This document shows, one piece after another, positions 17,750 to 45,777 of a DNA stretch of 64,000 nt. The stretch covers positions 1 to 64,000 of the forward strand of contig NZ_JBAJIJ010000003.1 of the NCBI RefSeq assembly GCF_036867135.1, given 5' to 3'. This DNA is from Aeromicrobium sp. Sec7.5. GTDB lineage: Bacteria > Actinomycetota > Actinomycetes > Propionibacteriales > Nocardioidaceae. The notes beneath the pieces are model-generated. The model had not been told where the DNA came from and searched no databases. It saw only the letters and a list, made by a program, of their open reading frames with translations. The position numbers were made by a program, and so were the translations under genes. How positions within the stretch are numbered: the stretch's first letter is position 1; each line of letters starts with the position of its first letter.

Positions 17750-17756
17750 ACCGAGA

Positions 17757-21752: not shown

Positions 21753-21913
21753 ACGACGAACTTATTCGACTGGCGTCGTGTCAGGTGGCAGCTTGCCTGC
21801 GGTGCGAGCGGTCAGCGTTCGCCACGCTCGGGCTGAGCGATGCGATCGGCACCCTGCCGAGGAACGCGTACATCAACGTGAGCTGGTCGTCTGGCCGCGT
21901 CCCGACGGGCGAA

Positions 21914-22810: not shown

Positions 22811-22881
22811 GCCATCTCCTGCAGACTAAGTTCTTGGACTCGAGGACTTTGATCCCCCGCTTCGCGAGGTTGCTGGGGCAG

Positions 22882-23460: not shown

Positions 23461-23467
23461 GCGCGTT

Positions 23468-23914: not shown

Positions 23915-23921
23915 GTGGGAC

Positions 23922-25159: not shown

Positions 25160-25172
25160 ACCACTGGCAAGT

Positions 25173-27909: not shown

Positions 27910-28116
27910 GTGGACAGGTAGCAGAGTCCGGCGCGTATCCCGGCTGCGATCCCGGTGGCTGGCGCGAACCGTCAGGCAGGTGGTCCGCAGGATTTTCGCG
28001 GGCTCCCTCGACGCGCTCAGCCTTCGCTCGCGGGTTTGAACCCTGTTCGTGATCCCATGGATCGGTGGGCGTGTGGGGTGCTGCCCGCGCTGATTCTCGA
28101 ATGAGGGAGTGATGTC

Positions 28117-29581: not shown

Positions 29582-29605
29582 GTTGGTCTCTTCCGTAAGA
29601 ACTGA

Positions 29606-30682: not shown

Positions 30683-30749
30683 GTACTTGATATCGGCGAA
30701 CTTCGGCCAGTTGATGACGGGACAAACCTTGACCTCAATTGAACCAAGA

Positions 30750-30767
30750 CTTAGCATATTTGCTATG
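30750..30767. promoter_or_regulatory. Operator-like dyad, copy 1
   Basis: CTTAGCA-TATT-TGCTATG lies between the divergent methyltransferase and phosphoesterase genes, 24 bp before the latter's ATG. A closely similar perfect dyad recurs at 41878-41895 before the recombinase cassette. It is a candidate binding site for a shared repressor of the island. Confidence 0.5.
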
Positions 30768-30790
30768 TCACACGCCGTGAACTTCTCCTC

Positions 30791-31912
30791 ATGACACACG
30801 CTGCCAGGATCGAGCGGCGACACCGCAACACGCTCGCGAAGTACGTGGCTCCATCCACCGTGGCTCTCGCTTGTGGAATCGATCGTGATGGATTGGGCGC
30901 CTGGGTCGCTGGAGATGATCGCCCATCAGACCTCGGCCGCGCACAGCTGCTCTGGGACGTGTTCTCCAAGCACATCCGGTCACGAGGGTTTGTGGGCGCG
31001 GGTAAGTGGATCAGCGACCCGAAGCCCTGGCCTCACAGCGAGCGTCCCGCCAACCTGATCGCTGCGGGCGACCGGGAGGCGTTCGCCGAGACTATCGGGC
31101 TGGCCGTCCACGGGGTCGCGTACGACTTCGACCATCTGGACTCATTCGGCGGCGCACAGGTCGGTCTGGCCGGCGACTGGCACGGCAACACACGATGGGC
31201 GTTGAAGAAGCTGGAGAGGTTCCACCGAGACGGGATCCGCACCATCTTGCACCTCGGGGACTTCGGCCTGTGGCCAAATCAGGGAGGAGCAAAGTTCCTT
31301 CGCCGCATCGATGAGGCTTGCCTGGAGTACGACCAGACCATCTACGTCACGGACGGCAATCACGAGGATCACGCGAGACTCGCCTCCGTCGAGCCATACG
31401 CCGGGAAGCGCTGGGTCTCCGACCGCGTCGCCTTCTTCGAGCGCGGACACCGGTGGCGGTGGCAGAACCAAACCTTTGTGAGCCTGGGTGGCGCAGCGTC
31501 CGTGGACTTCGAGGACCGCGCAGAGGGGCGCTCATGGTGGCGCGACGAAGTTGCCTCCACGGCCGACGTCGAACGGGCCGTCCGAAACGGGCGAGCCGAC
31601 GTGCTGCTCACCCATGACGCACCCGCTCCGAGTACACCGACGATCGAGCAGATCATCCGCACCAACCCACTGGGGTTCTCGGAACGTGCACTCGAGTACG
31701 CCGCCGAGAGCCGTGTCCGCGTGACCGAGACCTTTCACGCTCTCCAACCTGTGCTTAACGTCCATGGGCACATGCACTACGGCGAGCGTCGCAAGCGACA
31801 CATCGAGGGGTTCCCGCACCTCACTGAGACGATCGCGCTGTCCTGTGACAACGACGAAGGCAACATCGCAATCCTCGACGTTCTCGACCTTCGTGTTCGC
31901 CCCATCGACTGA
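30791..31912 (+). CDS. Metallophosphoesterase with N-terminal antitoxin-like domain
   Basis: This is a 373-residue protein. The C-terminal calcineurin-like phosphoesterase has all metal-binding blocks: GDWHGN, HLGDFGLW, DGNHEDH, LLTHDAP and HGHMH. The first about 110 residues are helical. They include WVAGDDRPSDLGRAQLLWDVF and a WPHSERPANLIAAGDREA segment resembling the small helical fold of Xre/MbcA/ParS antitoxins. Such a fusion could bind the dyad just upstream and autoregulate (inference). It is divergent from a DNA methyltransferase. The substrate is unknown: nucleotides or nucleic-acid ends are typical for this superfamily. Confidence 0.82.
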   Translation: MTHAARIERRHRNTLAKYVAPSTVALACGIDRDGLGAWVAGDDRPSDLGRAQLLWDVFSKHIRSRGFVGAGKWISDPKPWPHSERPANLIAAGDREAFAETIGLAVHGVAYDFDHLDSFGGAQVGLAGDWHGNTRWALKKLERFHRDGIRTILHLGDFGLWPNQGGAKFLRRIDEACLEYDQTIYVTDGNHEDHARLASVEPYAGKRWVSDRVAFFERGHRWRWQNQTFVSLGGAASVDFEDRAEGRSWWRDEVASTADVERAVRNGRADVLLTHDAPAPSTPTIEQIIRTNPLGFSERALEYAAESRVRVTETFHALQPVLNVHGHMHYGERRKRHIEGFPHLTETIALSCDNDEGNIAILDVLDLRVRPID

Positions 31913-31938
31913 ACTGACCGACCGCCAGGAGGTTCAAA

Positions 31939-32250
31939 GTGTCAAAGCATGCCGGGAACGATCACGACGGCCACTCACCTATGGACATCATCCTCGAGCG
32001 CCGCGACGGCATCATCACGACCGAAGAGATGATGAAGCTTCTCCGGGACTATCACTACACGTCGTTCATGCCCGCAGCCGACGACTGGGACCCTCTCGCG
32101 ATGATCGCCATGCCGCGAGGGACCATCGAGGACCTGGGCGAGGCATTCGACGAGAATCTTCTCGCCGAGGACGAGTACGACACACTTGCGACGGACCCGA
32201 GCCTGAAGGTCACCCGGACCCAGATGCCCAGCATTCGGGAACTGGACTAG
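31939..32250 (+). CDS. Hypothetical small acidic protein
   Basis: This 103-residue protein starts with GTG at 31939 behind a strong AGGAGG site. A His/Asp-rich start (KHAGNDHDGHSPMDIILERRDG) is followed by TTEEMMKLLRDYHYTSFM and an acidic helix. It lies 26 bp after the phosphoesterase gene, so it is likely co-transcribed. Size, acidity and position would suit an antitoxin or small regulatory partner, but no motif confirms this. Confidence 0.6.
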   Translation: MSKHAGNDHDGHSPMDIILERRDGIITTEEMMKLLRDYHYTSFMPAADDWDPLAMIAMPRGTIEDLGEAFDENLLAEDEYDTLATDPSLKVTRTQMPSIRELD

Positions 32251-32342
32251 GACGCCGCACCTCTGCGCCCCGTGGCGCGGAATCGATCATCGGACCAACA
32301 CTCTCCCGGAGCCGTCGCGCCGCGCGCACTAGTGGCGCGGCA

Positions 32343-32693
32343 CTAGTCGTCTTCCGGAGTGGCGAGGTCGAACGCCGGTACGAGATGGACGTGCACGCTG
32401 TGAAGTACGTCCTTGGTCGCCGCCATGAGTTCATCCACCCACACTGGGACGTTCTCGGTATGCCGGAACTGGGTCGTGGCGCGACCGATCTGCCGTTCCA
32501 AAGTCAGGGCCGACTCGTACAGCCGCTGGAGGCCTCGCACATCGTCAGGGCCAATCACATACAGGTGTGGTTCAGACTTCCTGCTTCGGAATTGGCGGCG
32601 CTGTTGAGTGTGCGTCTCGCAGAAGCGAGCGCTGTTGCTCGCTAGTGGGGTATCGCATGAAAGGCAGTAGTTAACGTTGCCGTCGTGCGACAT
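32343..32693 (-). CDS. Hypothetical zinc-ribbon protein
   Basis: This is a 116-residue protein. The first 35 residues contain NYCLSCDTPLASNSARFCETH, a CX2C-X12-CX2H arrangement typical of a small zinc ribbon. A basic linker and a helical C-terminal half with several His follow. ATG at 32693 was chosen because it places the zinc ribbon at the N-terminus. Function is unknown; nucleic-acid binding is plausible. Confidence 0.55.
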   Translation of the reverse strand: MSHDGNVNYCLSCDTPLASNSARFCETHTQQRRQFRSRKSEPHLYVIGPDDVRGLQRLYESALTLERQIGRATTQFRHTENVPVWVDELMAATKDVLHSVHVHLVPAFDLATPEDD

Positions 32694-32984
32694 GCGCCGC
32701 TGGGGTGAGGTGCCGCGGCGGCCGACCGGAATCTCATTGATCGGCCGGGGTGGGACCCGCGGAGCTTGCGGGTTTCGTGCAGTCGGGCGCAGTCCCGGCA
32801 TCATGACTCCTCAGAGCTCGCAGAGGCGGCCGGCATTCGATGATCGCCGACCTGACCGCTCCTCGCATTCCCGGCGCGGTACTTACCGGCGACTTTCGCC
32901 TCGCCACAAAGCGACCCGCGGCACGAGGCCGCCACGGTCTCCCAATTCCCCGCGAACCGCACCTTCGAAGTCTCCGCGCTTCTG

Positions 32985-33701
32985 TCAGCTGAGGGTCAAC
33001 TGACGCCATCCTGTGCCGTCGAGGGCCTGCGAGATGGGAGCGTCGTCCGGGGGCGCGTAATCCAATGTGCGGAAGGTGACGCGCGAGACGCGCCAGGCAT
33101 CGTCGTCGCGTACCAGGTCGATTCGGTGCGTCACCCACGTCCGGAAGTCATCGTCTTGGTCAAGGCCCAGCGAGAAGGCGATCTCGACCGAGATCGAGTC
33201 TGGGCGTTCGGGATCGCCGATGGTTTGGGTCCTGATCCAGGACTCCTCATTGGTGCGCCAGACCCGGCGGATCTCAGAGCCCTTGTTTCTGGCGAGGCTT
33301 GTCTCGAAGTAGGAGACCGTGGCGGGATCGGCGTCTTCCGCTACGAGCGTTTCGACCATCTTGTCGACATCCATCTCTTCGCGGGTGTCGACGATCAGGT
33401 GCAGAAACTCGACCGCGAACGCTTCCGCGTCAGAGCGGCTGCTACCCGCATCGGAAAGTTCTTCGGCAAGGTCGAGGCTCGGAAGATCGGTCGGGCCTTC
33501 CGGGGAGTCTCTAAAATCGCCTGGTTCCGCGATTGGCTCTCCTTCGGCCAACTCGGTCAGTTGGCTCCCATCGTCCGGGACAATGGAATCTGAACCACTT
33601 GAGCCGCCCCCGCCACCGTTGGATTGCAGCGCGACGACCGCGAACGCTACGACCACGGCTACGACCGCGGTCCCCCCGATTCCTGCCCACCGTCGATTCA
33701 A
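32985..33701 (-). CDS. Membrane-anchored protein with NTF2-like domain
   Basis: This is a 238-residue protein. One N-terminal membrane helix (IGGTAVVAVVVAFAVVAL) is followed by a Gly/Ser linker, an acidic low-complexity region, and a C-terminal domain of about 140 residues. That domain starts EAFAVEFLHLIVDTREEMDVDKM and ends with strands (WVTHRIDLVRDDDAWRVSRVTF), as in VirB8/TraC-type NTF2-like proteins of actinobacterial conjugative elements. Its ATG overlaps the stop of the SGNH gene. It is probably an envelope protein inherited from an integrative element (inference). Confidence 0.6.
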   Translation of the reverse strand: MNRRWAGIGGTAVVAVVVAFAVVALQSNGGGGGSSGSDSIVPDDGSQLTELAEGEPIAEPGDFRDSPEGPTDLPSLDLAEELSDAGSSRSDAEAFAVEFLHLIVDTREEMDVDKMVETLVAEDADPATVSYFETSLARNKGSEIRRVWRTNEESWIRTQTIGDPERPDSISVEIAFSLGLDQDDDFRTWVTHRIDLVRDDDAWRVSRVTFRTLDYAPPDDAPISQALDGTGWRQLTLS

Positions 33702-35815
33702 GGCTGTGTCCTCGCAGTCAATGCGTTGCCGAAAGCGATCGCGTATCCGAGTTGCCCGGACGCGTTCGGATGGAAACTGTTCGGGATCGGGTTCACGTCA
33801 AGATCGTGGATCCAGTCATCGTAACCGTTGTCCGAGCAGGCTCCGTGGCCCATGAACACTGAGCGAACGCCCTGGCCCACAGACCATACTCCGGCTGCGT
33901 TGGCTGCTGACGTGATGACGTTGTTTAGTCTGATCACCAGCCGATCGGCCATCGCTCGCTCCGCCGGCTTGATCTCTTGACAGGTCAACGGATCGAACAG
34001 ACCTCCGCGTCCGCCGACGGTGATGACCTGGGGATACCCACCCACCATGATGTCCGCGTACGGCTGCTCCTGTCGCATGAACGAGTAGAGCGTCGTCAGT
34101 GTGGGGAGCAGCGCGTCGATCCTGTTGGCAGCAGTCGCCTCAAGGTTGGTGCAGTCGAGAAGCACGCACTGCTTGATCAGACTCGCGAAGCCGACGTCGT
34201 TTCCACCGATCGTCATCGTGATGAGACGCGGCCTGGACGGCGATCCGTTGAAGGACATCATCGCCTCATACATCTGATCCACGATGGCGTCCGTCTCCGC
34301 GCCCCCGCAGGCCTTCGATGACGTCAGATACTGGAGAGAGCTCTGCATGTCATACGGCCACGGGCTTGTTCCAATCATGCAGTAAGGATTGGTGTTGGCT
34401 GGGATGGTCCCCGTGCCCGCAGTGTAGGAGTCCCCCAAGGGGGTGTAGACCCGATTTCCTGGTAGCCCGCGGGTGCGAGTCGTCGGACTGTAGGTCCACC
34501 CACCGTTCAAGTACGCCCGATTCGGAAGCACCCTGAATTGGTGGTAGTAGCCGCTGTAGATGAGGTCGATTTCCCACAGAGTGGCCGTCACCGGGTAGGG
34601 CAGGTCGACCCATGCCTCGCCTCCAGCCGTCATGGTCCGCCGCGACAGCATGTAGCCGGTGGCGTTGTTCGAAGCTGCCCACCCGAGAGTGACGCTCGTC
34701 TGGCCGACGTGCCACGCCGACAGCGTGGGCACAGTCGCAGGTTGCGGTCCACCGACGGTCCTACTGACCGTCGGGCTCGCGGTTCCTCTGCTAAACCCCT
34801 TCGATGGGAAGATCTTGAACTCGTAGGTTCCTCCCGCCGCGAGGATGTCGACGGTCCAACCGTTTCCTGATGCCGGGGCCTGAAGTTCATAGAACGCCTG
34901 ACCGGAGTTGACCAAACGCATCTGGATGAACATTCCCGTCGAGCCGGTCGAAACGCGAGACCAGCCCAGCGTTGCCGCTTCCGACCCCGCGGTGACCGTG
35001 GGCGTCGGCGCAGCAACGTTCCAGGGCTGGTAGGTGGCAATGTTCGGACCGATTGTGCCAATGCCGAGCTGCGCGAGACCCTCCGAGATCCGCTGCGCGA
35101 TGAGGGCTTCACCGGTGGGGTTGGGGTGGGTGCCGTCCCACGTGTGTGCCTGGGCATCCCACCCATTGCGGGTGGACGCGATGACAACTCGCTCCGCAGC
35201 GGTGTTCGTCTGCGCCGCGTACGTCTGCAGCAGTGCGGCGTACTGGTTCGTCTCGTTCGTGATCTGGTGCGTCTGGGTCCATGGGTTCCAGCGGTTGACG
35301 ACTTCCGCGACAACGATGTCGATTCCTGGCTTGGCCGCCCGGGCTTGATTCACGTACGTCGTCAGGTTCGCAATCGTCTCGGAGGGGCTGGTCAGATATG
35401 CGAGGTCGTTGCTGCCTAGAGCAACGACCAGGACGTTCGCATTCGTTGACGTGACCTGGCCGCCGATCTGACCGAGTTCTTGGGTATACGAGTCGCCCCA
35501 TCTCGCGGAGTGAGCCTTCGCGCTAAACGGGGCTGCGTAGTGCTGCGAGCCGTGCACGTTGTTGACGATGTCGAACAGGTCGGTCCGTGTCCCCACGAAC
35601 TCCACGTTGCCCGGTGCCGTCCCCGCGAGCTTGTTCCAGAGTCGGTAGCGCCACGTGTAGTCGCCCGACGAACCCTGGGTGATGGAGTCGCCGGTTATCA
35701 AGATGCGGTGGGCGGGGACTGCCGCCGCTGGTGGCGCAGACAGAGTGACTGAGACGAGAAGCGAACTCAGTAGGGCGACGATGAGCATGGCGGCGCTATG
35801 CCGGCGGGTCACCAT
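33698..35815 (-). CDS. Secreted protein with two SGNH hydrolase domains and two FN3-like domains
   Basis: This is a 705-residue precursor with a signal peptide (cleavage near AAA-VPA at about 33). The first SGNH domain has GDSIT at 42-46, GSND at 134-137 and DGTHPN with Asp227/His230. Two fibronectin type III-like domains occupy about 265-355 and 360-450. The second SGNH domain has GDSYTAG at 461-467, GGND at 537-540 and SFHPN with His682. In the second domain the usual Asp three residues before His is Asn679, as in Streptomyces-type lipases. Substrates may be acyl or acetyl esters in the cell envelope or outside. It is the middle gene of a three-gene operon, 3 bp after the preceding gene. 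Confidence 0.85.
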   Translation of the reverse strand: MVTRRHSAAMLIVALLSSLLVSVTLSAPPAAAVPAHRILITGDSITQGSSGDYTWRYRLWNKLAGTAPGNVEFVGTRTDLFDIVNNVHGSQHYAAPFSAKAHSARWGDSYTQELGQIGGQVTSTNANVLVVALGSNDLAYLTSPSETIANLTTYVNQARAAKPGIDIVVAEVVNRWNPWTQTHQITNETNQYAALLQTYAAQTNTAAERVVIASTRNGWDAQAHTWDGTHPNPTGEALIAQRISEGLAQLGIGTIGPNIATYQPWNVAAPTPTVTAGSEAATLGWSRVSTGSTGMFIQMRLVNSGQAFYELQAPASGNGWTVDILAAGGTYEFKIFPSKGFSRGTASPTVSRTVGGPQPATVPTLSAWHVGQTSVTLGWAASNNATGYMLSRRTMTAGGEAWVDLPYPVTATLWEIDLIYSGYYHQFRVLPNRAYLNGGWTYSPTTRTRGLPGNRVYTPLGDSYTAGTGTIPANTNPYCMIGTSPWPYDMQSSLQYLTSSKACGGAETDAIVDQMYEAMMSFNGSPSRPRLITMTIGGNDVGFASLIKQCVLLDCTNLEATAANRIDALLPTLTTLYSFMRQEQPYADIMVGGYPQVITVGGRGGLFDPLTCQEIKPAERAMADRLVIRLNNVITSAANAAGVWSVGQGVRSVFMGHGACSDNGYDDWIHDLDVNPIPNSFHPNASGQLGYAIAFGNALTARTQP

Positions 35816-35818
35816 GAG

Positions 35819-36586
35819 TCAGCTCGCGCTATCGAACGACTGCCAACCGAGACCCTCGAGGGTCGCGGCACGCTCGGCGTCCGAGAGGTCGTCGACTGAG
35901 CTCTTACCCGCCGGTTGAGGGACCTCGCGGGGAGCGATACTCACGAGATCCCAACCGGCCTCGGTCCATTGCACCACTCCACCAACGACAGCCCAACGCG
36001 TCGCACCCGCGATCGTCAACGGTGCAGCAATCTCGACCATCACCTGGTCCGGGGCCGCGTCGTCTCCGGAGTGCGCGATCACTCGGTAGGCCCCGACCTC
36101 GACGGCGAAATGATTGTCTCCGCTCCGATCGATGTCGAGCAGCGTTTGGGCAACTGCCGGGTTGAGAAGGTCGCTGGCCACAGCGTCGAGAGCTGCGGCT
36201 GCATCGCTTGCAGCGGCGGGCGATCCAATCAGCCAAGCGCTGTAGGAGGAGAACGCTGCGACTGCTCCGTTCTTCGTCCGGTCCTTGCCCTTGGCGACAG
36301 GCGTAGCGAGGTCACCTACTTCGGGCGCCGGCTTGACCAGACCCTCTTGCAACGAATCCGCACCAGGCGCAGTTGCCGGCTCGCCCGGGTCGATGACAGT
36401 CGTGTCGTTCGGCCCAGCCGCAGGAGTGGGTACCGGCGCGGCGACCGGACTGGGCGGATCGTCACCGGACTGCGCATCGGCAGCCATCGAGGCTCCGAAG
36501 AGCAGCCCAAACGCGATACCTGCGGCGGCGATCCCTGTCCCCTTGGACTTCCCGGTGAACGGTCCCCGGCTCGAACGTCTGCTCAT
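35819..36586 (-). CDS. Membrane-anchored protein with NTF2-like C-terminal domain
   Basis: This is a 255-residue protein with a basic N-terminus, one helix (GIAAAGIAFGLLFGASMAA), a Pro/Ala-rich linker of about 70 residues, and a C-terminal domain. The layout (AVAAFSSYSAWLIGSPAAAS, YRVIAHSGDDA, strands, then W-containing end) resembles the product of the third gene in this operon and the paired NTF2-like transfer proteins of actinobacterial plasmids and integrative elements. First gene of the operon. Function is inferred from architecture only. Confidence 0.55.
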   Translation of the reverse strand: MSRRSSRGPFTGKSKGTGIAAAGIAFGLLFGASMAADAQSGDDPPSPVAAPVPTPAAGPNDTTVIDPGEPATAPGADSLQEGLVKPAPEVGDLATPVAKGKDRTKNGAVAAFSSYSAWLIGSPAAASDAAAALDAVASDLLNPAVAQTLLDIDRSGDNHFAVEVGAYRVIAHSGDDAAPDQVMVEIAAPLTIAGATRWAVVGGVVQWTEAGWDLVSIAPREVPQPAGKSSVDDLSDAERAATLEGLGWQSFDSAS

Positions 36587-37099
36587 TGTCTTTCCTCACC
36601 CTGGCGTTTCGATGGTCGTTAGAACGCGACGATCGAGGCCTGAGAGGGCTTTCGACGCTGCCGGGGTTGTGACGAGGCAAGCGAGTCGCTGCCTACTCCT
36701 CGCACAGCTGGCGAGATTGTTACGAAACTCAACCGCCCGAGGATGCGGCGCCGACGATGCTGGCGAGGACGACGCCCGATTGCTTGTTTGGAGGCTCAGC
36801 GCCCAAAGCTGATCGTTCAGCATGAGGTTCGGCCAGGACGGACGCGCTCCGAGCACTCCTGGTGAGCAAACGGGGCCGATGCGGCCTAGCGACCTTTAGG
36901 TTGGGCTATTCCTGCGTCTCAACCGATCGGGTTCGCCAGTTTACGTGGCTGAAACATGCTGGGCAGCGTGCCGCCGGGGCACATCGGGCGTATGCGGTTC
37001 GATGGGAATGGGATCCCCAATCCTCGCTGGAGACGCTACGGGTCCCGGCAATAGTCAGGGCTTGGTGCGAGCCGAGCCACCCGAAGGCAGGTGACGGTC
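36587..37099. other. Non-coding stretch, 513 bp
   Basis: Lies between two divergent accessory genes. Frames are open on both strands for up to about 85 codons but lack ribosome sites and look like chance. No repeats or hairpins were noticed. The promoter of the envelope operon should lie just right of 36586. Confidence 0.5.
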
Positions 37100-37357
37100 A
37101 TGGCAAAGGGACGCGACACGCGACGTCGGTTTACGAGTACCCAGGAGTTCGAGCTCCAGCTCGTGAGGCATCAGCACGTCCGCCGAGTCATCAATTTCGT
37201 AGGGGCCTTCCTGATCGCTACTGGCATCCGCCCAATGGTCGAGGCGATCGCGGGGCAGAGCACCTCGTTGACCATTTACGTCCCGATCGCTGCGACCCTG
37301 TCGGCACTCGCGCTGGCGCTGCCAATCGCTCTCAATCGCCGCCGGGCCGGCCGTTGA
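37100..37357 (+). CDS. Hypothetical two-helix membrane protein
   Basis: This is an 85-residue protein. A charged N-terminus of about 30 residues (KGRDTRRRFTSTQEFELQLV) is followed by two hydrophobic helices (VINFVGAFLIATGIRPMVEAI and YVPIAATLSALALALPIAL) and a basic tail. Start ATG at 37100 has a weak GGCAGG site. Size and topology suit a holin-like or phage-associated membrane protein, but nothing specific supports that. Confidence 0.45.
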   Translation: MAKGRDTRRRFTSTQEFELQLVRHQHVRRVINFVGAFLIATGIRPMVEAIAGQSTSLTIYVPIAATLSALALALPIALNRRRAGR

Positions 37358-37535
37358 CCCAGCACGGGCCTGCTTCCCAGAGCGCCGATGTCCGGTGAGT
37401 GGGCCTGGCTTGGGTGGCGACCGTGGATCGACCGCCCGTCGCGAACGACGCAATCGAGCCAAGCGGAGTCCTCGGCGTCGGACGACCGATGCTCAACCGA
37501 TTCGACAAGGACTGGTCAGGCCGCTGCTCCGGGAT

Positions 37536-38666
37536 TCACCGAGGCGTCGTCTCGGACGTATAGAACGAGCCGATCCCGCCGCCGATGAAGTAACTGCCCG
37601 CTGGGTGATAGGCCTTCGCCCTGCGCACGGCGGTCTCCCATACCTTCGGCTCTACACCTTCTGGTGCCCCTGCCTCGAACTCTTTCGGACCCCTGCGGTG
37701 TCCTCGCATGATCGCGGAATGGAGAGGCTCCGGGAACTCGCCCGACTCGTAGAGCCCGTGGTCTCTCGAGACCAGGCCCCTGTCCGTCACGGCCCACCCG
37801 TCCCATACCCATTCGTACATCTCGCCGCGAACCCAGAACCCCGGCAAAGCGGCCCGCCCCGCCATCGCCTCCTGGATCGCGATGCTCAGATGTTGAAACA
37901 TCGGAGCGCCAATGCTCCCTGCTTCAGCACCGAAACCACGCCGCCGCATTTCGACAACAAGCGCCGCGACCGCCTCCGCTGCGGGGGTGTCTGCATGCCA
38001 ATCGACCTCCACGACCGGGGTCCCGGTGTGCTCGGGGCGCTTCTCTTCGACCACGTAGGTCAACCGCATTCTTGGCTGGCCGTGCAGGATGCCTGCCTCC
38101 TCGTCGTCCGCCATTTGCGGCCCCCACGAGAATCCCACTCGCGGACCATCAATCTGCTCTGACGCTGGCACGACTACGACCCCGCCCGCGAGTGCTCCGA
38201 GCGAGTTCGCATGCTCGAGCGCCTTTGCAACGTTTTCGAACGACACATCCGAAGCCAGTCGGCTGCTTTCCGCGAACCGATGAGCGTCTGTGGCGGCGAC
38301 CTGGCTTTCGAGTTGAGCTTGCAGGGCGTCGAGCCGGACGCCGAGATTCGAGTTTGCCCGCTCCAGATCCTTGGTACGGGTTTCGACCACTTCTTGAGCA
38401 CTGGTCCTAGCGACACTCTTGACGCGCTTCTCTAGGACGCGCTCGAGAAGAAACGCTACGGCTACCAACATGACTGCTGTGCCAACGTTGAGCAGGGCGG
38501 TAGCCAGCAGGGACTGTTGTGTCCCGAATTGGTCACCGAACTTGGCGCTGAGCACGAACGGACTGGCGGAGACGCCGAATCCGACGACAGCAACGATCGC
38601 CATAGCGCCCCATCGAACCTTCACCTGCGGCTCTTCCGACACTGGCACTCCCTGTCGATCGGTCAT
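37536..38666 (-). CDS. Hypothetical membrane protein with coiled coil
   Basis: This is a 376-residue protein. Two N-terminal helices (AMAIVAVVGFGVSASPFVLS and LLATALLNVGTAVMLVAVAFLL) are followed by a basic coiled coil (about 80-130, RTKDLERANSNLGVRLDALQAQLESQ) and a large soluble domain. The domain contains several Trp and strand-helix alternation (GFWVRGEMYEWVWDGWAVTD). No family recognised. The arrangement of anchor, coiled coil and globular sensor is common among uncharacterised defence-island proteins. Confidence 0.55.
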   Translation of the reverse strand: MTDRQGVPVSEEPQVKVRWGAMAIVAVVGFGVSASPFVLSAKFGDQFGTQQSLLATALLNVGTAVMLVAVAFLLERVLEKRVKSVARTSAQEVVETRTKDLERANSNLGVRLDALQAQLESQVAATDAHRFAESSRLASDVSFENVAKALEHANSLGALAGGVVVVPASEQIDGPRVGFSWGPQMADDEEAGILHGQPRMRLTYVVEEKRPEHTGTPVVEVDWHADTPAAEAVAALVVEMRRRGFGAEAGSIGAPMFQHLSIAIQEAMAGRAALPGFWVRGEMYEWVWDGWAVTDRGLVSRDHGLYESGEFPEPLHSAIMRGHRRGPKEFEAGAPEGVEPKVWETAVRRAKAYHPAGSYFIGGGIGSFYTSETTPR

Positions 38667-38821
38667 GCATCTAGATCTCCCACGCCAAGCGCGGACGTTG
38701 GCTTTGGACTGGGCGTCGCCCGCGATTCAAACAGGTCGAGGCATGGCTTCGGCCTTTAGCGCTCCGCAACACCGCATGCGAGCCTGCGGTCAGGATCGCC
38801 CACGCCTGCGACGATATAGCG

Positions 38822-39649
38822 ATGATCGCTGCTGCTGGGTCGTCTGGGATCGAAACCCTTACCGCTTGGAGCACGCTCGGGGCAGCGATAGCGACCACCG
38901 TCTCGGTTGTCTTCATTGCGTGGCAGATCCGGCTGACACGTAAGAGCGTCGAGGCCACCGAACAGGCTCTGGCGCTGGCCCATCAGGAATTTCGACACAG
39001 TGAAACTCTGCGGGTCGATGCTCAGCGAGCCGCGATCGACGCCGAGATGCCCCGAATTACCGTAGAGGTCTACTCCCAGAGCTCGGAGGTCTGGCGCGTC
39101 GACAGTCTCGAACCGGATGCCGTGACGAAGGCCGACAGTACTACCGCATTGCCTTTCAACGAGGAGTTCATCGTTCCCAGGGACGACGAGGTATTACTCG
39201 GAGTTCGCGTGCGTCTTGTTGTGAGCAACGATGGTCCTCGCCGGGCGCCGCTACGACTGGACAGATTCGGGGGCGGAGGTCGAGAGATCGTTCTCGGAGT
39301 GGGTGAGACCCACAGCGAACTTGTTGGCCGAGTGCAACCGCTCAGAGAATGGGTCTCGATTGCGGAGGCCCGGGCGAACGGCGAGCCCGGCGAGGAGCGG
39401 GCGATCGCGACGGTGGTCTTGGTACACCCCGGAGACATGAGCGCAGTCGAGGTCCATGAGGTCGTGCAAGGCGGCACGGTCGTCGAACCTGTTTATGCGA
39501 ACGCAGCGGGATGGCGGCTCGCATCGTTCGACCGAACGCTTGAGAACCCGTTTGGCTGCGTCAACGCTGTTGTGCAGCCGTTCACCCGAAGGTACTGGGC
39601 CTCTCGTCGAGACGGACGGTTGCTGGACCCGCCAAACGGTTCGAGTTAG
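38822..39649 (+). CDS. Hypothetical membrane-anchored protein
   Basis: This is a 275-residue protein with one N-terminal helix (WSTLGAAIATTVSVVFIAWQI), a coiled-coil segment of about 40 residues (RKSVEATEQALALAHQEFRH), then a beta-rich domain. The N-terminal pattern is typical of small membrane proteins annotated only as hypothetical in actinobacterial islands. It converges on the ApeA-like gene across 264 bp in which I see no gene. Function unknown. Confidence 0.55.
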   Translation: MIAAAGSSGIETLTAWSTLGAAIATTVSVVFIAWQIRLTRKSVEATEQALALAHQEFRHSETLRVDAQRAAIDAEMPRITVEVYSQSSEVWRVDSLEPDAVTKADSTTALPFNEEFIVPRDDEVLLGVRVRLVVSNDGPRRAPLRLDRFGGGGREIVLGVGETHSELVGRVQPLREWVSIAEARANGEPGEERAIATVVLVHPGDMSAVEVHEVVQGGTVVEPVYANAAGWRLASFDRTLENPFGCVNAVVQPFTRRYWASRRDGRLLDPPNGSS

Positions 39650-39913
39650 CGCCGAGGATCGACCGCCAGGTTTGGCCTATCGACTCGCAGTAACCGCTTT
39701 CATCCAAGGCGCCCCTCCGGCCTGGTGCTTTTCGTAGCAGCGGATCTTCCACTTCGAAGCCCCAGTAGTTGTTCTACGACTCCGCCGATTGGCGGCGACG
39801 TGAGCACGGTGCTCGAGAACGGCTCTGGTCGCGCGCCTGATCGGTTGACAGTGAGATCGCCGCTACGGCGCTGTCGTGATTCCGAAACCGTGTCGACGCG
39901 GACCAACCGCGAC

Positions 39914-41257
39914 CTAGCGCAGTTCGTAGGGGTGGGACAACCGATCCAACGCCAGCCGCTCAGTGAGCTTCTCTGTGTCGACCCCAAGTTGGCTCGCGAT
40001 CCATGCTCGGAACACTTGCACCGATTGACGCCATCCGTTGAGAGATTCGAGAAACTCTGGCTTCTCGCGATTGGCGTGCTTAGTTCCGTTGTACACGTCC
40101 GACATCCGTTGTGCCCACGCCATAGGCTCAAAGCCAAGGTCGGAAGAGATGTCCCGCGCGATTCGCTCGAGCCGCTCACGGAAGTTCGCACCCCTTGCCG
40201 CTCTCGGTGATTCGCCGTCTTGGAGCAAGAGTTCATAGCCGATCGCTTCCAAACCGATCCCCATTTCGGTGACCCGGCTTGGAACTGGAGCCCCCGGATT
40301 CTGCAGGGAACTAAGGATCGGGTCGATCCCTCGGCTGAAGTCGTTGCGGAGCTTCATCCACCGCCGGACGCCGGCGACGTGTACGTGGCTCGCGTTGAAA
40401 AGAAACAGGTGATCGAGATCGAGATCGGCCCCTTCTTCAGCAGGACTCGGGTTGGTTGCGTAGGTGACGACCGGATGCCAGGCCTCGCCGATCCGTGCGC
40501 CCGACAGTGAACGTGCAGGATCGCTGTCGGTCATTGCCCGATGCGATAGGAATCGTGGAGTTTTCCACGCTGCGACCGCGAGTAGGTCGCGTATCGCGAG
40601 GTGCGGTGCCATGTGTTGAGACCACGATCGGGCGTCCGCTACGCGCGTTTCGACCCGTGTTGGTTCCTTCAGGACGGTGTCGCGGCCACTCTCGTCAGGT
40701 TCAAATGAGGTGACGAGCGTCAGGTTGAGTCCGTGAGCGATCGGGAGGCGTGCTCGATGCTGGGCGGTGTAGGTGCTGGAGGTCCAACCATGCTCGGTCA
40801 ACTCGTCGGAGCGTTCGAGGGTGGAAGTCGCGAACCATCGCGCTAGCCCGTCGATCTCTGACTGGAGCGCGTTGATCTTCTGGTAGGCAGATGCGCCATC
40901 GCCACCCAGGACGGCGTAGCGCGCTGTGATTCGACCTCGGCTGTGACCGCCGAACTGGCTGCGGTATCCCGCTGACCGGCAACCTACGAGCACGACGGAT
41001 CCGTCGTTGTCGTGGAAGTCGATGCATTCCGGCACCATGTAGGCGAATTTACTGCGGTCGGGATCATCTCCCCACCGCATGTCGCGCCCCATAAACCACC
41101 GGCTGTACTCGGCGTTGATGTCATCGTGCCAAGGAATGGTGAGCACGAGGTTTGTACCCGTGTTCTCGAGGAGAGCTGCCTGGTAGGGGGTCCTTTCGTC
41201 GTTGTCGAAGATGAACCCGACACGGTGTGCGTCTGGCTCAAGAAGGTTCCTGCTCAT
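39914..41257 (-). CDS. ApeA-like HEPN-domain protein
   Basis: This is a 447-residue protein. The N-terminal 280 residues fit the ApeA N-terminal domain: an opening with paired strands, SAYQKINALQSEIDGLARWF, and a helix APHLAIRDLLAVAAWKTPRFLSHRA. The C-terminal region is helical and ends in a HEPN-type segment with YNGTKHANR, where the Asn/His pattern matches the Apea-like HEPN RNase family. ApeA-type proteins are single-gene abortive-infection defences acting through RNA cleavage. ATG at 41257 is supported by an AGGGAGG site. The call rests on pattern recognition; the RX4-6H motif of other HEPN nucleases is not exact here. Confidence 0.65.
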   Translation of the reverse strand: MSRNLLEPDAHRVGFIFDNDERTPYQAALLENTGTNLVLTIPWHDDINAEYSRWFMGRDMRWGDDPDRSKFAYMVPECIDFHDNDGSVVLVGCRSAGYRSQFGGHSRGRITARYAVLGGDGASAYQKINALQSEIDGLARWFATSTLERSDELTEHGWTSSTYTAQHRARLPIAHGLNLTLVTSFEPDESGRDTVLKEPTRVETRVADARSWSQHMAPHLAIRDLLAVAAWKTPRFLSHRAMTDSDPARSLSGARIGEAWHPVVTYATNPSPAEEGADLDLDHLFLFNASHVHVAGVRRWMKLRNDFSRGIDPILSSLQNPGAPVPSRVTEMGIGLEAIGYELLLQDGESPRAARGANFRERLERIARDISSDLGFEPMAWAQRMSDVYNGTKHANREKPEFLESLNGWRQSVQVFRAWIASQLGVDTEKLTERLALDRLSHPYELR

Positions 41258-41676
41258 ACGCCCTCCCTTGCGAAGCGCAGCAGTTGCTTGCTTGCGAACC
41301 GAGGCCGGACGTCGATCTGAAACACATGGGCCGGCCGAGCATGATCCCGGCGTGGGTCCCGTCGTCTGCCACGAACCAAACGTAGGCGAGCGACGCCCGT
41401 TCCGAAATGTTTCCCGACTTCCCAGTGCGCCCGCCCGTGGCACGACAGGTGCCACTCGTCTAAGCAAGGGCTGTCGGCGAACAGGCGCAGGCCTGGTGCC
41501 AGTGCCTTGGCATGTGCGATCAAAGCGGTGGCTCTCGTGGTGTGCGAGGTGGTCTTCGTCGGTCTACCGCATGAGGCATCGAGGCTTTCCGGTAGGCGCA
41601 CATTTCTGCGCTCACGCGATGTTCTGACACGTGAACTAGTCGCGAAGTCCCGTGCCGCGACCGTGCTAGTTCGCAC
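41254..41676 (-). pseudogene. Possible degenerate gene upstream of the ApeA-like gene
   Basis: A 140-codon frame ends in an ATGA overlap with the ApeA-like start, as in coupled operons, and its last 25 residues (HVFQIDVRPRFASKQLLRFAREGV) look protein-like. Further upstream the composition becomes Arg-rich and unnatural, while a neighbouring frame reads SLAYVWFVADDGTHAGIMLG, which looks better. This suggests a frameshifted relic of a real gene. The family cannot be named. Confidence 0.3.
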
Positions 41677-41877
41677 TCGATCCGTGCAACAGCGGCGGAT
41701 CGAGCTCGACTAGTTGCGCCTAGTTCGGATGGTGTCACCCCTGGCATGCACCTTCGACCCATGCCACCCCACAACGTTCGCCCCCGGGTTCAGGTTCGCC
41801 GCGGCGGGCGACGTACCTCGACTCGGTCCTACGCGGCTGATGCCTGGGGCTTGACGTGGTGCGGAGCCAGTCAGACG

Positions 41878-41895
41878 CTTAGCACATCTGCTAAG
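41878..41895. promoter_or_regulatory. Operator-like dyad, copy 2
   Basis: The perfect dyad CTTAGCA-CATC-TGCTAAG lies about 140 bp before the small ORF of the recombinase cassette. It matches the dyad at 30750-30767 (CTTAGCA-N4-TGCTA[T/A]G). A repressor-binding role is inferred. Confidence 0.5.
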
Positions 41896-41930
41896 TGCTC
41901 GAAGGGAGCGACACACCACAACTGAAGGAA

Positions 41931-41979
41931 GGGAGGTGGACCGGGGGCAACCGGTCCACCTCCCGGAGGCAGAGCCTCC
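41931..41979. repeat. Two back-to-back hairpins in the leader of the recombinase cassette
   Basis: A perfect 14-bp stem (GGGAGGTGGACCGG with CCGGTCCACCTCCC, loop GGGCAA, 41931-41964) is followed directly by a 6-bp stem (GGAGGC-AGA-GCCTCC, 41965-41979). In RNA these would be very stable and could act as a leader attenuator or sequester a ribosome site. As DNA they could be the recognition end of a mobile element. No T-tract follows, so a simple terminator is unlikely. Confidence 0.65.
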
Positions 41980-42035
41980 ACGAGTCAACGGCGTATGGGG
42001 ACGCCGACCAAACATCAAACAACTAGGAGTACCTG

Positions 42036-42131
42036 ATGCTCTCGACCCGCAACACCATGATCTCGTCCGGGCATGACAGTTCCAACTCGGACGGACGTCC
42101 GACCGCTACATCGCGAGTGGCGGTGGCGTGA
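42036..42131 (+). CDS. 31-residue leader-type ORF
   Basis: ATG at 42036 follows TAGGAG by 6 bases. The frame encodes 31 residues rich in Ser, Thr and Arg (MLSTRNTMISSGHDSSNSDG) and ends in a TGATG overlap with the recombinase gene. A good ribosome site plus a coupled junction makes translation likely. It may simply deliver ribosomes to the recombinase gene or be a small DNA-binding accessory; no fold can be inferred. Confidence 0.5.
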   Translation: MLSTRNTMISSGHDSSNSDGRPTATSRVAVA

Positions 42132-43144
42132 TGTCCCGCAAAGCACGCAAGCAGAACGAGGTTCGGATCGAATCCGGGCTCGGCCCCGGAGTGGCACCCA
42201 GCGCCCCGTACCCGGCGTCGTCGACACAGTTCCGTGAACTTGTCGCGACAGACCCGGAGCGGGTCATGCGACTGTCGAAGTTCCAGCCGCGCCTACCCGC
42301 CGCACTCGTGACGCAGGTCCGCGACGCCGTGATCATGCTGGTCATGCGGGTCCCGTTCGGCAGTGTCCGCACCGACAACGCAATGATCGGTGTCGGCTAC
42401 CAGTACGCCGTGGCGTGCGTGAAGCAGCGCGGCGGATTCGACCCGTTCCGAGACCTGCGCGATGACCTGCTCACGGAGTGGGCGTACCGCCGAGGCGACA
42501 AGGGCGCGACTGCCGCATCGAAGTTAAGCACCCTGCGGCGGCTGCGGGACGCCCCCGGGAAGAAGCCAGCGAGGGGCAACCGGTCGATCGCGTCGGCGCC
42601 ATACACACCGGCAGAGTGGGATCGGCTGTGGGAAGCGGTGCAGGAGAGCGACGTCCGTGGTGCGGCCATGACCTTGGCGCTGATCGGTCGCCTCGGACTC
42701 CGTCCCGGTGAGGTGACCCGGGCCGACTCGCATTCGATCCTCGAGGTCGCCGGCGGTCTCGCACTCCACGCGTACGAGCAGACCGGTGTCATGCGGGTCG
42801 TTCCGGTGGACCCGGTGACCGCCGAACTGCTGGTGCCGTTCCTGGAGGGCGACCCGCGGTTCTTGGTCCGTCCGACGGTGGGCCGGTACACGAACCTCGT
42901 CTATCACGTACTGCACGAGCTTCGGCATTCGTCGCCTCAGTTCGCACACGTCGACTCTCACCGCCTGCGGCACACCGCGGTGGTGCGCTGGCTCCAGCAA
43001 CCGATCCCCTATCCGGTCGTGTGCGCGGCAATGGGGATCGGTGCGAGTTCACGCCTGCCATCCGATCTGATGCCGTACGTCCCCATCCCCCACGAGGGAC
43101 AGGTCCTGCGTTCGTTCCGCGAGTGGACGGGAGCCTTCAAATGA
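42131..43144 (+). CDS. Tyrosine recombinase-like protein
   Basis: This is a 337-residue protein. The C-terminal half has the integrase layout: box I Arg191 in GRLGLRPGEV, box II HRLRHT with His277/Arg280, and a candidate nucleophile Tyr316 in SDLMPYVP. The second catalytic His (usually LGH) is replaced by the MGIGASS segment, so the active site is divergent. The N-terminal 150 residues form the core-binding region, with VGYQYAVACVKQRG. Its ATG is coupled to the 31-residue ORF, and its stop overlaps the ATG of a DDE-transposase-like gene. The three form one translational unit, presumably a mobile element or a derived recombination system. Confidence 0.7.
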   Translation: MSRKARKQNEVRIESGLGPGVAPSAPYPASSTQFRELVATDPERVMRLSKFQPRLPAALVTQVRDAVIMLVMRVPFGSVRTDNAMIGVGYQYAVACVKQRGGFDPFRDLRDDLLTEWAYRRGDKGATAASKLSTLRRLRDAPGKKPARGNRSIASAPYTPAEWDRLWEAVQESDVRGAAMTLALIGRLGLRPGEVTRADSHSILEVAGGLALHAYEQTGVMRVVPVDPVTAELLVPFLEGDPRFLVRPTVGRYTNLVYHVLHELRHSSPQFAHVDSHRLRHTAVVRWLQQPIPYPVVCAAMGIGASSRLPSDLMPYVPIPHEGQVLRSFREWTGAFK

Positions 43145-45105
43145 TCCGCGTTCCCGGTGCGCTTTCCCAGCGCACGCAGCGATTCAAGTTCGCCCGCCTT
43201 TGGGTAGAGCTCTCCGGAATCCTGGAGATCCTCGACACTTCACCGCGCCCGGAAGGAGGCCGTGGCCGTCCGGCAGTCCACCCACCGTACGACGCCCGCG
43301 GCATGCTGATCTGCCTGATGGAACTCGGCCTGTCGCGTGCGCCGCTGACGTACGCGGCTATGCAGGAGGCCCTGTTCTTCACCTACTCCGATGCCGAGAT
43401 GGAGATGCTCGGAATGGGCACCCTGCGCCAGCACCCGAACTACGAACTGTTCGCGAGCGGCCTCACGTTCCAGCACGACGCCGACGACAAGACGAAGGTG
43501 ACGGTCAAATACGCGAGTCCTCGCGCGCGCCGCGTGTGGGCGTCCGAGAACGAGCGACTCCGACGCGCGTTCGAGCGAGCCCTCGAACCGATCAACGACA
43601 ACGTCATGTGCCGCGCCGAGGACGACGACATCAACGGGAACTCACGCCGGTACAAGAACTCCGTCATCGAGGCAGAGCGTCGCCGGCAAGGCGTCCTTCC
43701 TCAGACCGCGATCCGGGACAAGGCCATGAACCGCCTCATCCTCGGATCCGTCTACGCCCTCAACGCACAGGCCTACCCGGACCTGGACCCAACGGACGTC
43801 CACTCGGGGATCCTCGCCGACCACGTTCACGACTACGCGATCGACGAGACCGACTACGTCACCGCCCAGTCGGCAACCACCAGCGTGAAGCCCGACAAGT
43901 TCCACGCTCGCGCCGAACTTGCTGCGCCAAGCCCGAAGAGCCGCCTCTACATCTGGTCCGAGAAGATCGGCCTCACGATCTTGTGCACCGTCTCACGACC
44001 GAACCGACCGAGGGTCCCGACGCTAACCGTCGCCGGGGCGCTCGGGAAGCCGAAGCCCGCCAACCCCGCCTCCGTCAAGACGATCTTGGAGTTCCTGAAG
44101 TCCAGCGGCTTCCGGACCAAGCCACGTGGACGCGCACATCAGTTCCTCGTTGGAGACATGGCCTACCCGGACTCCCGCGGATATGCCGAACTGATGTCCA
44201 AGATGCGGTTCTCCCAGGTCATGAAGTACCCGACCCGACGCAGGCGGATCCACCCACTGCGCACCTCGGAGGCGGCGATCCTCGCAGAGAAGCAGATGAA
44301 GTCGCTCAAGGCGTTCCCCGTGGCGGCACACCTCGCGAACGGATGCGTCGTCTGCCCTGGCGTCTCGAAGGCCGCTCTCGAAGGCCTGTCCCCCGGCGTC
44401 CCCACCCCCGCCGAGGGAACCGAGCGCACCCTCAAGGCCACCGACCTCGGCATGCCTCAGTACCGGCCCGCCGAACTTCAACAGCACGCCGAGGACAGTG
44501 CCTGGATCGAACCGTTCGAGATGAACAGCCACGGCCGTGCGCAGGTCGGTCCACTCCTCGGGTCCGGCCGTCCTCGCAACGACGCCCCGGACGCCCCCGT
44601 CGTCCACCGGCAGACGTTCAAGTGCCCTGCCGTGGACGAGAAGGTCCGCTGCCCCCACGTGCCGGAGTCGATGGACCGACACGAACTTCCCCGCGTGCCA
44701 TCACCGCCACCAGCCGACGACCTCCCGCCGACGTGCCAGCAGACCTACACGACGCTCGTGTTCTCCAGGAGAGAGTTCAAGCAACTCCAACCGCTTCGCG
44801 CCGGCACGTGGGAACACTCCGACATGTACGAGTCCGCGCGCGCACGCAACGAGTGGTTCAACTCCGTCCTCAAGAGTCCGAGCGGCGCTGGCCTCCACCC
44901 CCGACGAATCGAAGCCACAAAGAACGCGTTCCTCACCATCGCGATCGCCATCACCGTCGGCACGGCAAACCACCACGTCATGACCGCCTGGACCAACGAG
45001 GTCCTCGCCAACGACGGCGTCACTCCTCGCGAACCCCACGAGAAGAAGCAAGCCTCACGCAGACGTCAACTCGCCACCGCGAAGCAGAAGAAGGCTGCCG
45101 CATGA
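43141..45105 (+). CDS. DDE-transposase-like protein with zinc-finger insertion
   Basis: This is a 654-residue protein. The N-terminal region recalls IS1182/IS4-type transposases (RGRPAVHPPYDARGMLICLM). A candidate acidic triad is Asp235 in YAIDETDYVT, Asp339 in LVGDMAYPDS and Glu571 in RARNEWFNSVLKS, followed by a typical helix (NAFLTIAIAITVGTANHHV). Between the second Asp and Glu lies an insertion with Cys402, Cys405, Cys495, Cys504 and Cys532 that may bind zinc. The tail is strongly basic. It overlaps the recombinase gene by ATGA. A DDE enzyme co-translated with a tyrosine recombinase is not an arrangement I know. The domain call is by pattern and needs a profile search. Confidence 0.6.
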   Translation: MIRVPGALSQRTQRFKFARLWVELSGILEILDTSPRPEGGRGRPAVHPPYDARGMLICLMELGLSRAPLTYAAMQEALFFTYSDAEMEMLGMGTLRQHPNYELFASGLTFQHDADDKTKVTVKYASPRARRVWASENERLRRAFERALEPINDNVMCRAEDDDINGNSRRYKNSVIEAERRRQGVLPQTAIRDKAMNRLILGSVYALNAQAYPDLDPTDVHSGILADHVHDYAIDETDYVTAQSATTSVKPDKFHARAELAAPSPKSRLYIWSEKIGLTILCTVSRPNRPRVPTLTVAGALGKPKPANPASVKTILEFLKSSGFRTKPRGRAHQFLVGDMAYPDSRGYAELMSKMRFSQVMKYPTRRRRIHPLRTSEAAILAEKQMKSLKAFPVAAHLANGCVVCPGVSKAALEGLSPGVPTPAEGTERTLKATDLGMPQYRPAELQQHAEDSAWIEPFEMNSHGRAQVGPLLGSGRPRNDAPDAPVVHRQTFKCPAVDEKVRCPHVPESMDRHELPRVPSPPPADDLPPTCQQTYTTLVFSRREFKQLQPLRAGTWEHSDMYESARARNEWFNSVLKSPSGAGLHPRRIEATKNAFLTIAIAITVGTANHHVMTAWTNEVLANDGVTPREPHEKKQASRRRQLATAKQKKAAA

Positions 45106-45777
45106 ATCAGTGTGCGGAGCGCTCTCGAACAACTGGGCGGCAACCGCCTCACCCAAATATGAACGAGTAACAACGAGCAAGAACAACGCCGACGGCGCGA
45201 CCCGTCCCGCTGGATCCGGGCACCCGGACAGCCGAGCGCGACGTCCCGCAACGCCACCGGACTCGACGATCCAATCGCCAAAGGTCCACCGCGAGTGCAA
45301 CAAGCCGACCAACCGCTAGTCCCGCAAGCGCAAGCATCGAAGCGAGGCGCCCACCGATCACCGGATCGGCGGGCGCCTCGCTTCGTCGTTCCCGCAGAAA
45401 ACCCGTTAGCAAAAACCGAACGTTCTGGAGATCCCTCCCGCAGGGTGACATCGAACGTCCGACCACCCGACGGCGAACTGACGAATCACAGAGCTTCTGA
45501 GGGCCATCCAGCCCCCCTCGCAATCCCTTCAGAACCGATGGGAAATCCCCGAGAACCCATTGGCAAAACCATTGAAACCCTTGAGCGAGACCCTGTCGAT
45601 GCCCGGAAAGGCCTGCAATTGCAGTATATGTGAACCACTCTCCACCTACCGCGAAGCGGTCTTCTGAGCCGATGCTCTCGAATCGAGTGGGCCCCACCCC
45701 CACGAGCGAAGCGAGTCCCCGAGGGATCCCGTCATCGGCTCCCGCACGGAGTCCGACGTCGCCACTACGGTCGACCT
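45106..45777. other. Non-coding stretch with strong hairpin, 672 bp
   Basis: Lies downstream of the DDE-like gene. It holds the 48-bp hairpin at 45338-45385 and the perfect palindrome CTGCAATTGCAG at 45613-45624. It also holds a stretch of similar short phrases (CCCATTGGCAAAACCATTGA, then AAACCC) around 45420-45600 with lower GC than its surroundings. The cassette's right border and the island boundary are probably here. A minus-strand frame of 236 codons crosses the region but looks spurious. Confidence 0.5.
45338..45385. terminator. Long GC-rich hairpin after the recombinase cassette
   Basis: Arms of 21 nt (45338-45358 and 45365-45385) pair at 20 positions around a 6-nt loop CACCGG. This is by far the strongest stem in the area and lies 230 bp after the DDE-like stop. 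Only a short mixed tail (TCGTT) follows, so it may act as an actinobacterial stem-type terminator or as an element end. Confidence 0.55.

What the first reader, a model, noticed from the sequence alone, without database searches (positions are those of the whole stretch)
41878..45385. Compact recombinase + DDE-transposase-like cassette bracketed by strong hairpins
An operator-like dyad and two adjacent hairpins lead to a 31-aa ORF, a divergent tyrosine recombinase missing the second catalytic His, and a DDE-like protein with a Cys-rich insertion. All coding junctions overlap by 1-4 bases. A 48-bp hairpin closes the unit. Enforced co-translation of two enzymes from different transposition chemistries is not a known IS design. 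It may be a new class of mobile element or a domesticated recombination system.
Basis: partly seen in the sequence, partly recalled or inferred. Interest (0 to 1): 0.78.

Follow-up and report, generated by a model that had tools for sequence, protein, structure and literature searches.

The report
tRNA-homing transposon with dead integrase
The two genes are the mobility module of a large mobile island in an actinobacterium; relatives insert at the very end of tRNA genes, apparently pairing a transposase with a mostly burnt-out integrase that probably picks the target, a principle known from an unrelated transposon but here with other enzymes and another address.

The parts
1..45640 (.). Part of the mobile island that lies in the window (the rest, about 8.25 kb, is the end of contig C2 of the same genome; the join between the contigs is inferred)
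   Evidence: GC 65.1% against 72.1% beyond; duplication, inverted repeat and empty site
41878..41902 (.). Weak dyad upstream of the module, possible operator
   Evidence: z -2.8, 4 of 200 shuffles as stable
41931..41980 (.). Two adjacent hairpins upstream of the module, role unknown
   Evidence: z -7.7; 14-bp perfect arms in the first
42036..42131 (+). 31-aa open frame; no evidence that it is a gene
   Evidence: no family match
42131..43144 (+). Tyrosine-recombinase-fold protein, probably a DNA-binding target selector
43141..45105 (+). DDE transposase, D235/D339/E571, with a Cys-containing insertion before the Glu
45338..45385 (.). Strong hairpin inside the element end, probably a terminator after the transposase gene (inferred)
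   Evidence: z -7.6
45626..45640 (-). Transposase-side end (LE) of the element: terminal inverted repeat GAGTGGTTCACATAT read inwards
   Evidence: 12 of 15 identical to the end next to tRNA-Gly on C2; 0 of 2000 shuffles
45641..45645 (.). 5-bp target duplication TCCAC (other copy at C2:604131-604135, which begins with the discriminator base of tRNA-Gly)
45646..45749 (.). Original DNA downstream of tRNA-Gly(CCC), displaced by the insertion
   Evidence: similar sequence follows tRNA-Gly(CCC) in the 8 genus relatives that carry it

Best explanation
The two genes are the mobility module of a homing DDE transposon/island. SHOWN by sequence: the element has short imperfect terminal inverted repeats and, where both ends were in hand, is flanked by a 5-bp target duplication that begins with the discriminator base (nucleotide 73) of a tRNA gene, so the tRNA stays intact and the element begins five bases after the acceptor stem. 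In the core elements followed, the module sits at the end far from the tRNA; in the other clades it sits at the tRNA-proximal end. SHOWN: the module is a conserved pair with a near invariant DDE triad and a recombinase-fold partner that has lost most catalytic residues in most members. INFERRED: the Tn5-like transposase cuts and joins the ends with a 5-bp stagger, and the recombinase-fold protein, descended from a tRNA-directed integrase, binds the tRNA gene (perhaps its T-arm) and delivers the transposase there. Overlapping genes would keep the partners in step. Later insertions at the same tRNA stack elements in tandem.
For: Pair conserved. In 30 loci of the other clades (359,739 bases) ARAGORN found 21 tRNA/tmRNA genes, all at the transposase-side end; 20 of these have a transposase 3' end 108-278 nt away, the 21st (L109) a truncated one. 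25 tRNA-abutting ends share one register (four needed a 1-base correction by eye; L037 fits less well). 5-bp duplication plus inverted repeat in 4 of 4 core elements with both ends in hand (0, 0, 0 and 5 of 2000 shuffles) and, by eye, in 3 of 4 tandem Ala copies. Empty site: the joined flanks align with 8 relatives, cleanly across the junction in G004. Prediction test: of 3 further core elements, a tRNA upstream in the right orientation in 2. Triad D 49/51, D 51/51, E 49/51 (2 gaps) against Tyr 8/55, HisI 1/55, ArgI 20/55. Near-identical copies in two Corynebacterium species. Precedent: TnsF (PMC10293859, passages).
Against: No tRNA within 60 kb upstream of the G129 element, and none within the fetched flanks (up to 8 kb) of the 21 named core loci L112-L132, 19 of which were not followed further. 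L103 has a non-tRNA neighbour; L095 and L110 are degraded. In L102 the duplication does not match (ACCCA at the tRNA, ACCAG at the far end). G429's inverted repeat is weak (9 of 15). The window's own recombinase keeps ArgI, HisI, ArgII and a possible Tyr, so it may be less dead than its relatives. One transposase frame (L098) has no recombinase-like frame, though it sits at a tRNA. In G031 (L140) the empty-site alignment is gapped just after the tRNA. Foldseek alone gave Tn5 only at E 0.026. C2 and C3 are separate contigs. No movement was observed, and there is no binding evidence for the recombinase-fold protein.
Confidence: 0.7

Rival explanations
1. An ordinary tRNA-directed integrative island in which the tyrosine recombinase is the catalyst and the DDE protein is a passenger or accessory.
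For: tRNA 3' ends are the classical target of tyrosine integrases (recalled). The window protein keeps ArgI, HisI and ArgII. Overlap sequences can also leave short direct repeats.
Against: Across 55 recombinase rows the nucleophile column is Tyr in 8 and HisI is His in 1, while the DDE triad is near invariant. Ends are inverted repeats with a 5-bp repeat that follows each tRNA's own sequence (TCCAC, ACCAG, ACGAT, ACAAA), as transposition gives. That the DDE gene is present in every locus is no evidence, since the searches were seeded mainly with it.
Confidence: 0.13
2. A DDE transposon whose inactive tyrosine-recombinase-fold protein is a repressor or end-binding factor, while the transposase itself finds tRNA genes.
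For: MrpR/YopR and SroF, phage repressors of this fold, are among the structural matches (PMC10516654 seen as a search listing; that they are inactive as recombinases is recalled). TnpI of Tn5401 modulates tnpI and tnpA expression (PMC7157771, passages). A dyad and hairpins precede the module.
Against: Does not explain tRNA specificity by itself; TnsF shows the selector role for such a fold (PMC10293859). L098 lacks the recombinase frame but lies at a tRNA, which is neutral, as it may have lost it after insertion.
Confidence: 0.25
3. Tn3-like arrangement: the DDE transposase makes cointegrates and the tyrosine recombinase resolves them.
For: Tn4430 tnpI and tnpA are colinear (PMC7157771, passages).
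Against: No Tn3 transposase match; Tn5-like fold; recombinase catalytic residues mostly lost.
Confidence: 0.04

Closest known systems
Tn6022-like Tn7 element with TnsF (Faure et al. 2023, PMC10293859; passages read)
   Same: DDE transposon using an inactivated tyrosine-recombinase-fold protein as target selector; an overlapping gene pair in the targeting module
   Different: Tn6022 needs TnsA, B, C, TniQ and TnsF and targets comM; here a conserved two-gene module with a Tn5-like transposase sits at tRNA 3' ends. Whether the islands hold a TnsC or TniQ homologue was not systematically tested
Tn7-like/CAST homing at tRNA genes (CAST I-D, PMC10293859; passages read)
   Same: Protein-guided homing next to a tRNA gene
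   Different: CAST I-D inserts about 30-33 nt beyond the tRNA; here the duplication begins at the discriminator base
Tyrosine-integrase genomic islands at tRNA genes (recalled)
   Same: tRNA 3' end target, tandem arrays, tRNA kept intact
   Different: Here the conserved catalytic site is DDE and the recombinase partner is mostly inactive; inverted repeats with a 5-bp duplication
IS4/Tn5 transposases
   Different: 9-11% identity in the structural matches; P0002 itself has no family match; partner protein and fixed target
Tn4430/Tn5401 (Tn3 family) tnpI-tnpA (PMC7157771, passages)
   Same: Tyrosine recombinase gene next to a DDE transposase gene
   Different: Another transposase; TnpI is an active resolvase; no tRNA target (last point recalled)
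MrpR/YopR and SroF phage repressors
   Same: Recombinase fold (structural matches)
   Different: Repressors of prophages, no transposase partner (recalled)

Membership tests
IS4/Tn5-like DDE transposase superfamily | RNase H-like fold with D, D, E and an insertion before E | tested here: met
IS4/Tn5-like DDE transposase superfamily | Sequence membership by family model | tested here: inconclusive
   P0002 none; of 10 relatives scanned, 1 passes PF01609 and 2 more match PF13751 or PF01609 below cut-off
Active tyrosine recombinase | R-H-R-H/W-Y catalytic set conserved in the family | tested here: not met
   ArgI 20/55, HisI 1/55, ArgII 53/55, Tyr 8/55; the window protein keeps more than its relatives
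Active tyrosine recombinase | Tyrosine-recombinase fold | tested here: met
Tn7-like transposon | TnsB-type transposase as the nearest match | tested here: inconclusive
Tn7-like transposon | TnsA, TnsC and TniQ genes | not tested
   only 20 cargo frames of the window were scanned with Pfam; none matched these
Tn3 family | Tn3 transposase | tested here: not met
   no such Pfam or NCBIfam match
DDE transposon in general | Terminal inverted repeats and fixed-length target duplication | tested here: met
   4 of 4 core elements with both ends in hand, 3 of 4 tandem Ala copies by eye
DDE transposon in general | Transposition observed | not testable with these tools
   no experiment; near-identical copies in two species only

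The most novel reading that the evidence does not exclude
A previously undescribed superfamily of actinobacterial transposons in which a Tn5-like transposase works directly with a dead tyrosine integrase, without an AAA+ go-between, to insert with a 5-bp duplication exactly at the discriminator base of tRNA and tmRNA genes, stacking cargo islands of up to about 62 kb there.
Probability: 0.55. Interest if true: 0.92.

Novelty: new variant of a known kind. Interest (0 to 1): 0.85.

Why it matters
Islands at tRNA genes are normally credited to tyrosine or serine integrases (recalled). A DDE transposon family that lands at one exact base of tRNA genes would mean that part of these islands in actinobacteria, including Mycobacterium-related and Corynebacterium species, moves by another chemistry and is easily overlooked, because the transposase is not recognised and the recombinase only weakly recognised by the family models tried here. 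It would be a second case, after TnsF, of a dead recombinase used as an address reader, and a small two-gene system for site-specific insertion that can be tested directly.

Tried and rejected
Hairpins as element ends: rejected, the ends are elsewhere. Searches with P0002 in plasmids, phages and viral contigs gave no match, with the G129 protein in plasmids and phages none, with alignment A1 in viral contigs none. Generic scans for long inverted repeats showed no pair that could be the ends, and a search for an inverted copy of the first 45 nt of the tRNA-side end did not clearly exceed shuffles; the repeats are short and were found only through the tRNA register. A regular-expression search for the far end in named loci gave nothing convincing. 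Rfam at a relaxed threshold found nothing convincing near the module. Foldseek gave no match at E 0.001 for the transposase. Reading the palindrome and terminator beyond the core-clade ends as a structured RNA gene: dropped, it follows a tRNA or is the tRNA-side end of another element. Rows dropped: of the 15 genomes matched, G482 and G514 (L043, L044) looked spurious and were left out; L015 was not in the pairing and residue counts; before the DDE count 4 broken frames (L012, L042, L094, L095) were left out; before the recombinase count the duplicates L130 and L134 and the shifted row L038_3628. The 55 and 51 transposase frames still hold two duplicate pairs (L034/L130, L036/L134). Papers: searches for a description of this family listed none; subscription journals, preprints and ISfinder were not searched. 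PMC3414803, PMC10293859 and PMC7157771 were read as passages only, the rest as listings.
Full report
What is there. The hairpins are far more stable than shuffled sequence, the dyad less so. The recombinase matches Pfam Phage_integrase below its cut-off and the PHROGs integrase family; the second protein matches no NCBIfam or PHROGs family and only a chance-level Pfam entry, and no solved structure by sequence. The element is single copy in its genome, where the window is the first 64 kb of a 150-kb contig, C3.

The pair is conserved. Searches of whole genomes found relatives in actinobacteria: with P0002, 5 of 198 genomes near the window, its own included; with a profile, 15 of 393 genomes drawn from the class, its own included and two of the 15 probably spurious; and, with a profile of a second clade, 52 of 297 genomes of one family, many as fragments. 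A scan of named species gave 24 loci, among them Corynebacterium, Mycolicibacterium, Rhodococcus and Antrihabitans, and three more distant ones. Of 55 transposase open frames of 450 aa or more collected (two duplicate pairs included), 49 have a recombinase-like frame on the same strand within 900 nt; of the other six, four have one overlapping the long frame, one (L092) ends at a contig end and one (L098) has none. Some loci (L037, L039, L093, L094) carry two recombinase-like genes. These searches were seeded mainly with the transposase, so they show that the transposase is found with the recombinase, not the reverse; a search with P0001 alone hit 3 of 198 genomes, of which G133 was not seen to carry the transposase.

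Where the elements sit. In the clades away from the window the transposase gene ends just short of a tRNA or tmRNA gene. ARAGORN found 21 such genes in 30 loci of 359,739 bases in all, and no other tRNA in them. In 20 of these the tRNA 3' end lies 108-278 nt from the transposase stop, facing it; in the 21st (L109) the transposase end is truncated. The targets are Leu-CAG, Ala-CGC, Ala-TGC, Gly-CCC, Ser-CGA and tmRNA. Of the 9 loci without such a gene, L105, L106 and L135 show by eye a tRNA 3' half at the expected place, L097, L100 and L111 are cut by the contig end at the element end, L103 has another sequence there, and L095 and L110 are degraded.

The window element. Core-clade elements have no tRNA beside the transposase. 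Following the DNA beyond their ends showed why: where I could follow it, the tRNA lies at the other end of a long island. In Mycobacterium sp. GA-0227b (G429, identical to L130) a tRNA-Leu lies 22 kb away, and in Mycolicibacterium sp. P1-5 (G393, identical to L124) at least 38 kb. For the window, the DNA beyond 45640 resembles the sequence that follows tRNA-Gly(CCC) in eight genus relatives; these are the eight that matched it among the 49 genus genomes searched. The genome's own tRNA-Gly(CCC) is on contig C2 at 604061, and its likeness to relatives stops at the tRNA 3' end. The 4 kb before it match five of the nine relative stretches compared. Joining C2 up to the tRNA with the window from 45644 gives a sequence that aligns with the 8 relatives with 161-175 identities in 180-194 aligned letters, gaps not counted and the 73 tRNA letters included; of the two alignments printed, G004 (L141) runs through the junction without a gap and G031 (L140) is gapped just after the tRNA. 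GC is 65.1% before and 72.1% after 45640. The island is thus 45.6 kb in C3 plus 8.25 kb in C2, if these are neighbours; the gap between the contigs is unknown.

Ends and target duplication. Read outward from the tRNA, the acceptor stem ends, five bases follow that begin with the discriminator base, and the element starts. This register holds for 25 ends (20 transposase-side, 5 opposite); in four of them (L101, L102, L107, L109) my stem finder was one base off and the register was corrected by eye. The first element base is G in 20 of 21 distinct ends as counted before that correction; the exception is L037. For the four core elements with both ends in hand I looked for an exact copy of the five bases within 700 nt of the transposase stop and scored the inverted repeat beside it: window TCCAC 12 of 15, G011 ACCAG 13 of 15, G194 ACGAT 12 of 15, G429 ACAAA 9 of 15; of 2000 shuffles each, 0, 0, 0 and 5 did as well. 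In tandem copies at tRNA-Ala the five bases between the far end of one element and the start of the next equal those at the tRNA in three of four (L042 and L104 ACCAG, L109 ACCCA) and differ in L102 (ACCCA at the tRNA, ACCAG beyond) (by eye).

A prediction and its result. If core elements are tRNA-homing, a tRNA should lie upstream with its 3' end towards the element. I fetched 60 kb for each of three further core elements. G194 has tRNA-Leu at about 40 kb and G011, whose transposase gene is broken by a stop, tRNA-Arg at about 62 kb, both in the right orientation and with the duplication and inverted repeat just described; G129 has none. Nineteen named core loci were not followed beyond their fetched flanks.

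Mobility. L112 (C. tuberculostearicum) and L131 (C. propinquum) share 4239 bp at 99.9%, and the likeness stops about 248 nt past the transposase stop, near where the element end is expected. This points to recent movement between species, unless one assembly is contaminated. Stacked and decayed copies at the same tRNA point to repeated insertion.

Mechanism. The 5-bp duplication, inverted repeats, near invariant triad and Tn5-like fold indicate DDE transposition. What finds the tRNA is inferred. A recombinase-fold protein that is conserved while its active site decays is best explained as a DNA-binding address reader. The precedent is TnsF, an inactivated tyrosine recombinase that is required for a Tn6022-like Tn7 element to insert into comM (PMC10293859, passages). 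The alternative, a repressor or end-binding factor, is not excluded.

Comparison. Tn7-like homing to tRNA genes exists, about 30-33 nt beyond the tRNA for CAST I-D (PMC10293859, passages). Tn3-family elements with tnpI show that a tyrosine recombinase gene beside a DDE transposase is not new in itself (PMC7157771, passages). Van Houdt et al. (PMC3414803, passages) describe recombinase pairs and trios and a bipartite module; none of the passages seen describes this pair. The searches listed no description of this family. I therefore call it a new variant of a known kind: a homing DDE transposon with an inactive recombinase selector, but with another transposase, another target and possibly no mediator.

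Noticed in passing
window 39914-41467 (-): ApeA-like protein with HEPN domain (PF18862, PF18739), a likely phage-defence cargo gene beside the module; no PADLOC match.
   Followed up: partly
window 1-45640 and C2:604136-612388 (L169): Cargo includes a P-type ATPase, an rve-type transposase at 3882-4997, MFS and ABC transporters, a DNA methylase 29606-30823 and a GDSL lipase; the C2 part holds frames that look like a type I restriction-modification pair (read by eye).
   Followed up: partly
window 45646-45749; L137-L144: Downstream of tRNA-Gly(CCC) in this genus are one to several repeats that end in a copy of the tRNA 3' end, as left by other integrations; the tRNA looks like a hot spot.
   Followed up: partly
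L112 5747-9985 and L131 4647-8885: 99.9% identical element stretch in Corynebacterium tuberculostearicum and C. propinquum, a sign of recent transfer or of contamination.
   Followed up: no
L128 433-11533: Two modules in tandem, the second element apparently starting directly after the end of the first.
   Followed up: partly
L037, L039, L093, L094: Two recombinase-like genes instead of one upstream of the transposase.
   Followed up: no
window 40634-40675 (-): Hammerhead ribozyme match, 26.4 bits, below the family cut-off of 34, inside the ApeA-like gene; probably chance.
   Followed up: no
L014 10705-13429: Two 99.8% identical tandem copies of another IS near the G129 element.
   Followed up: no
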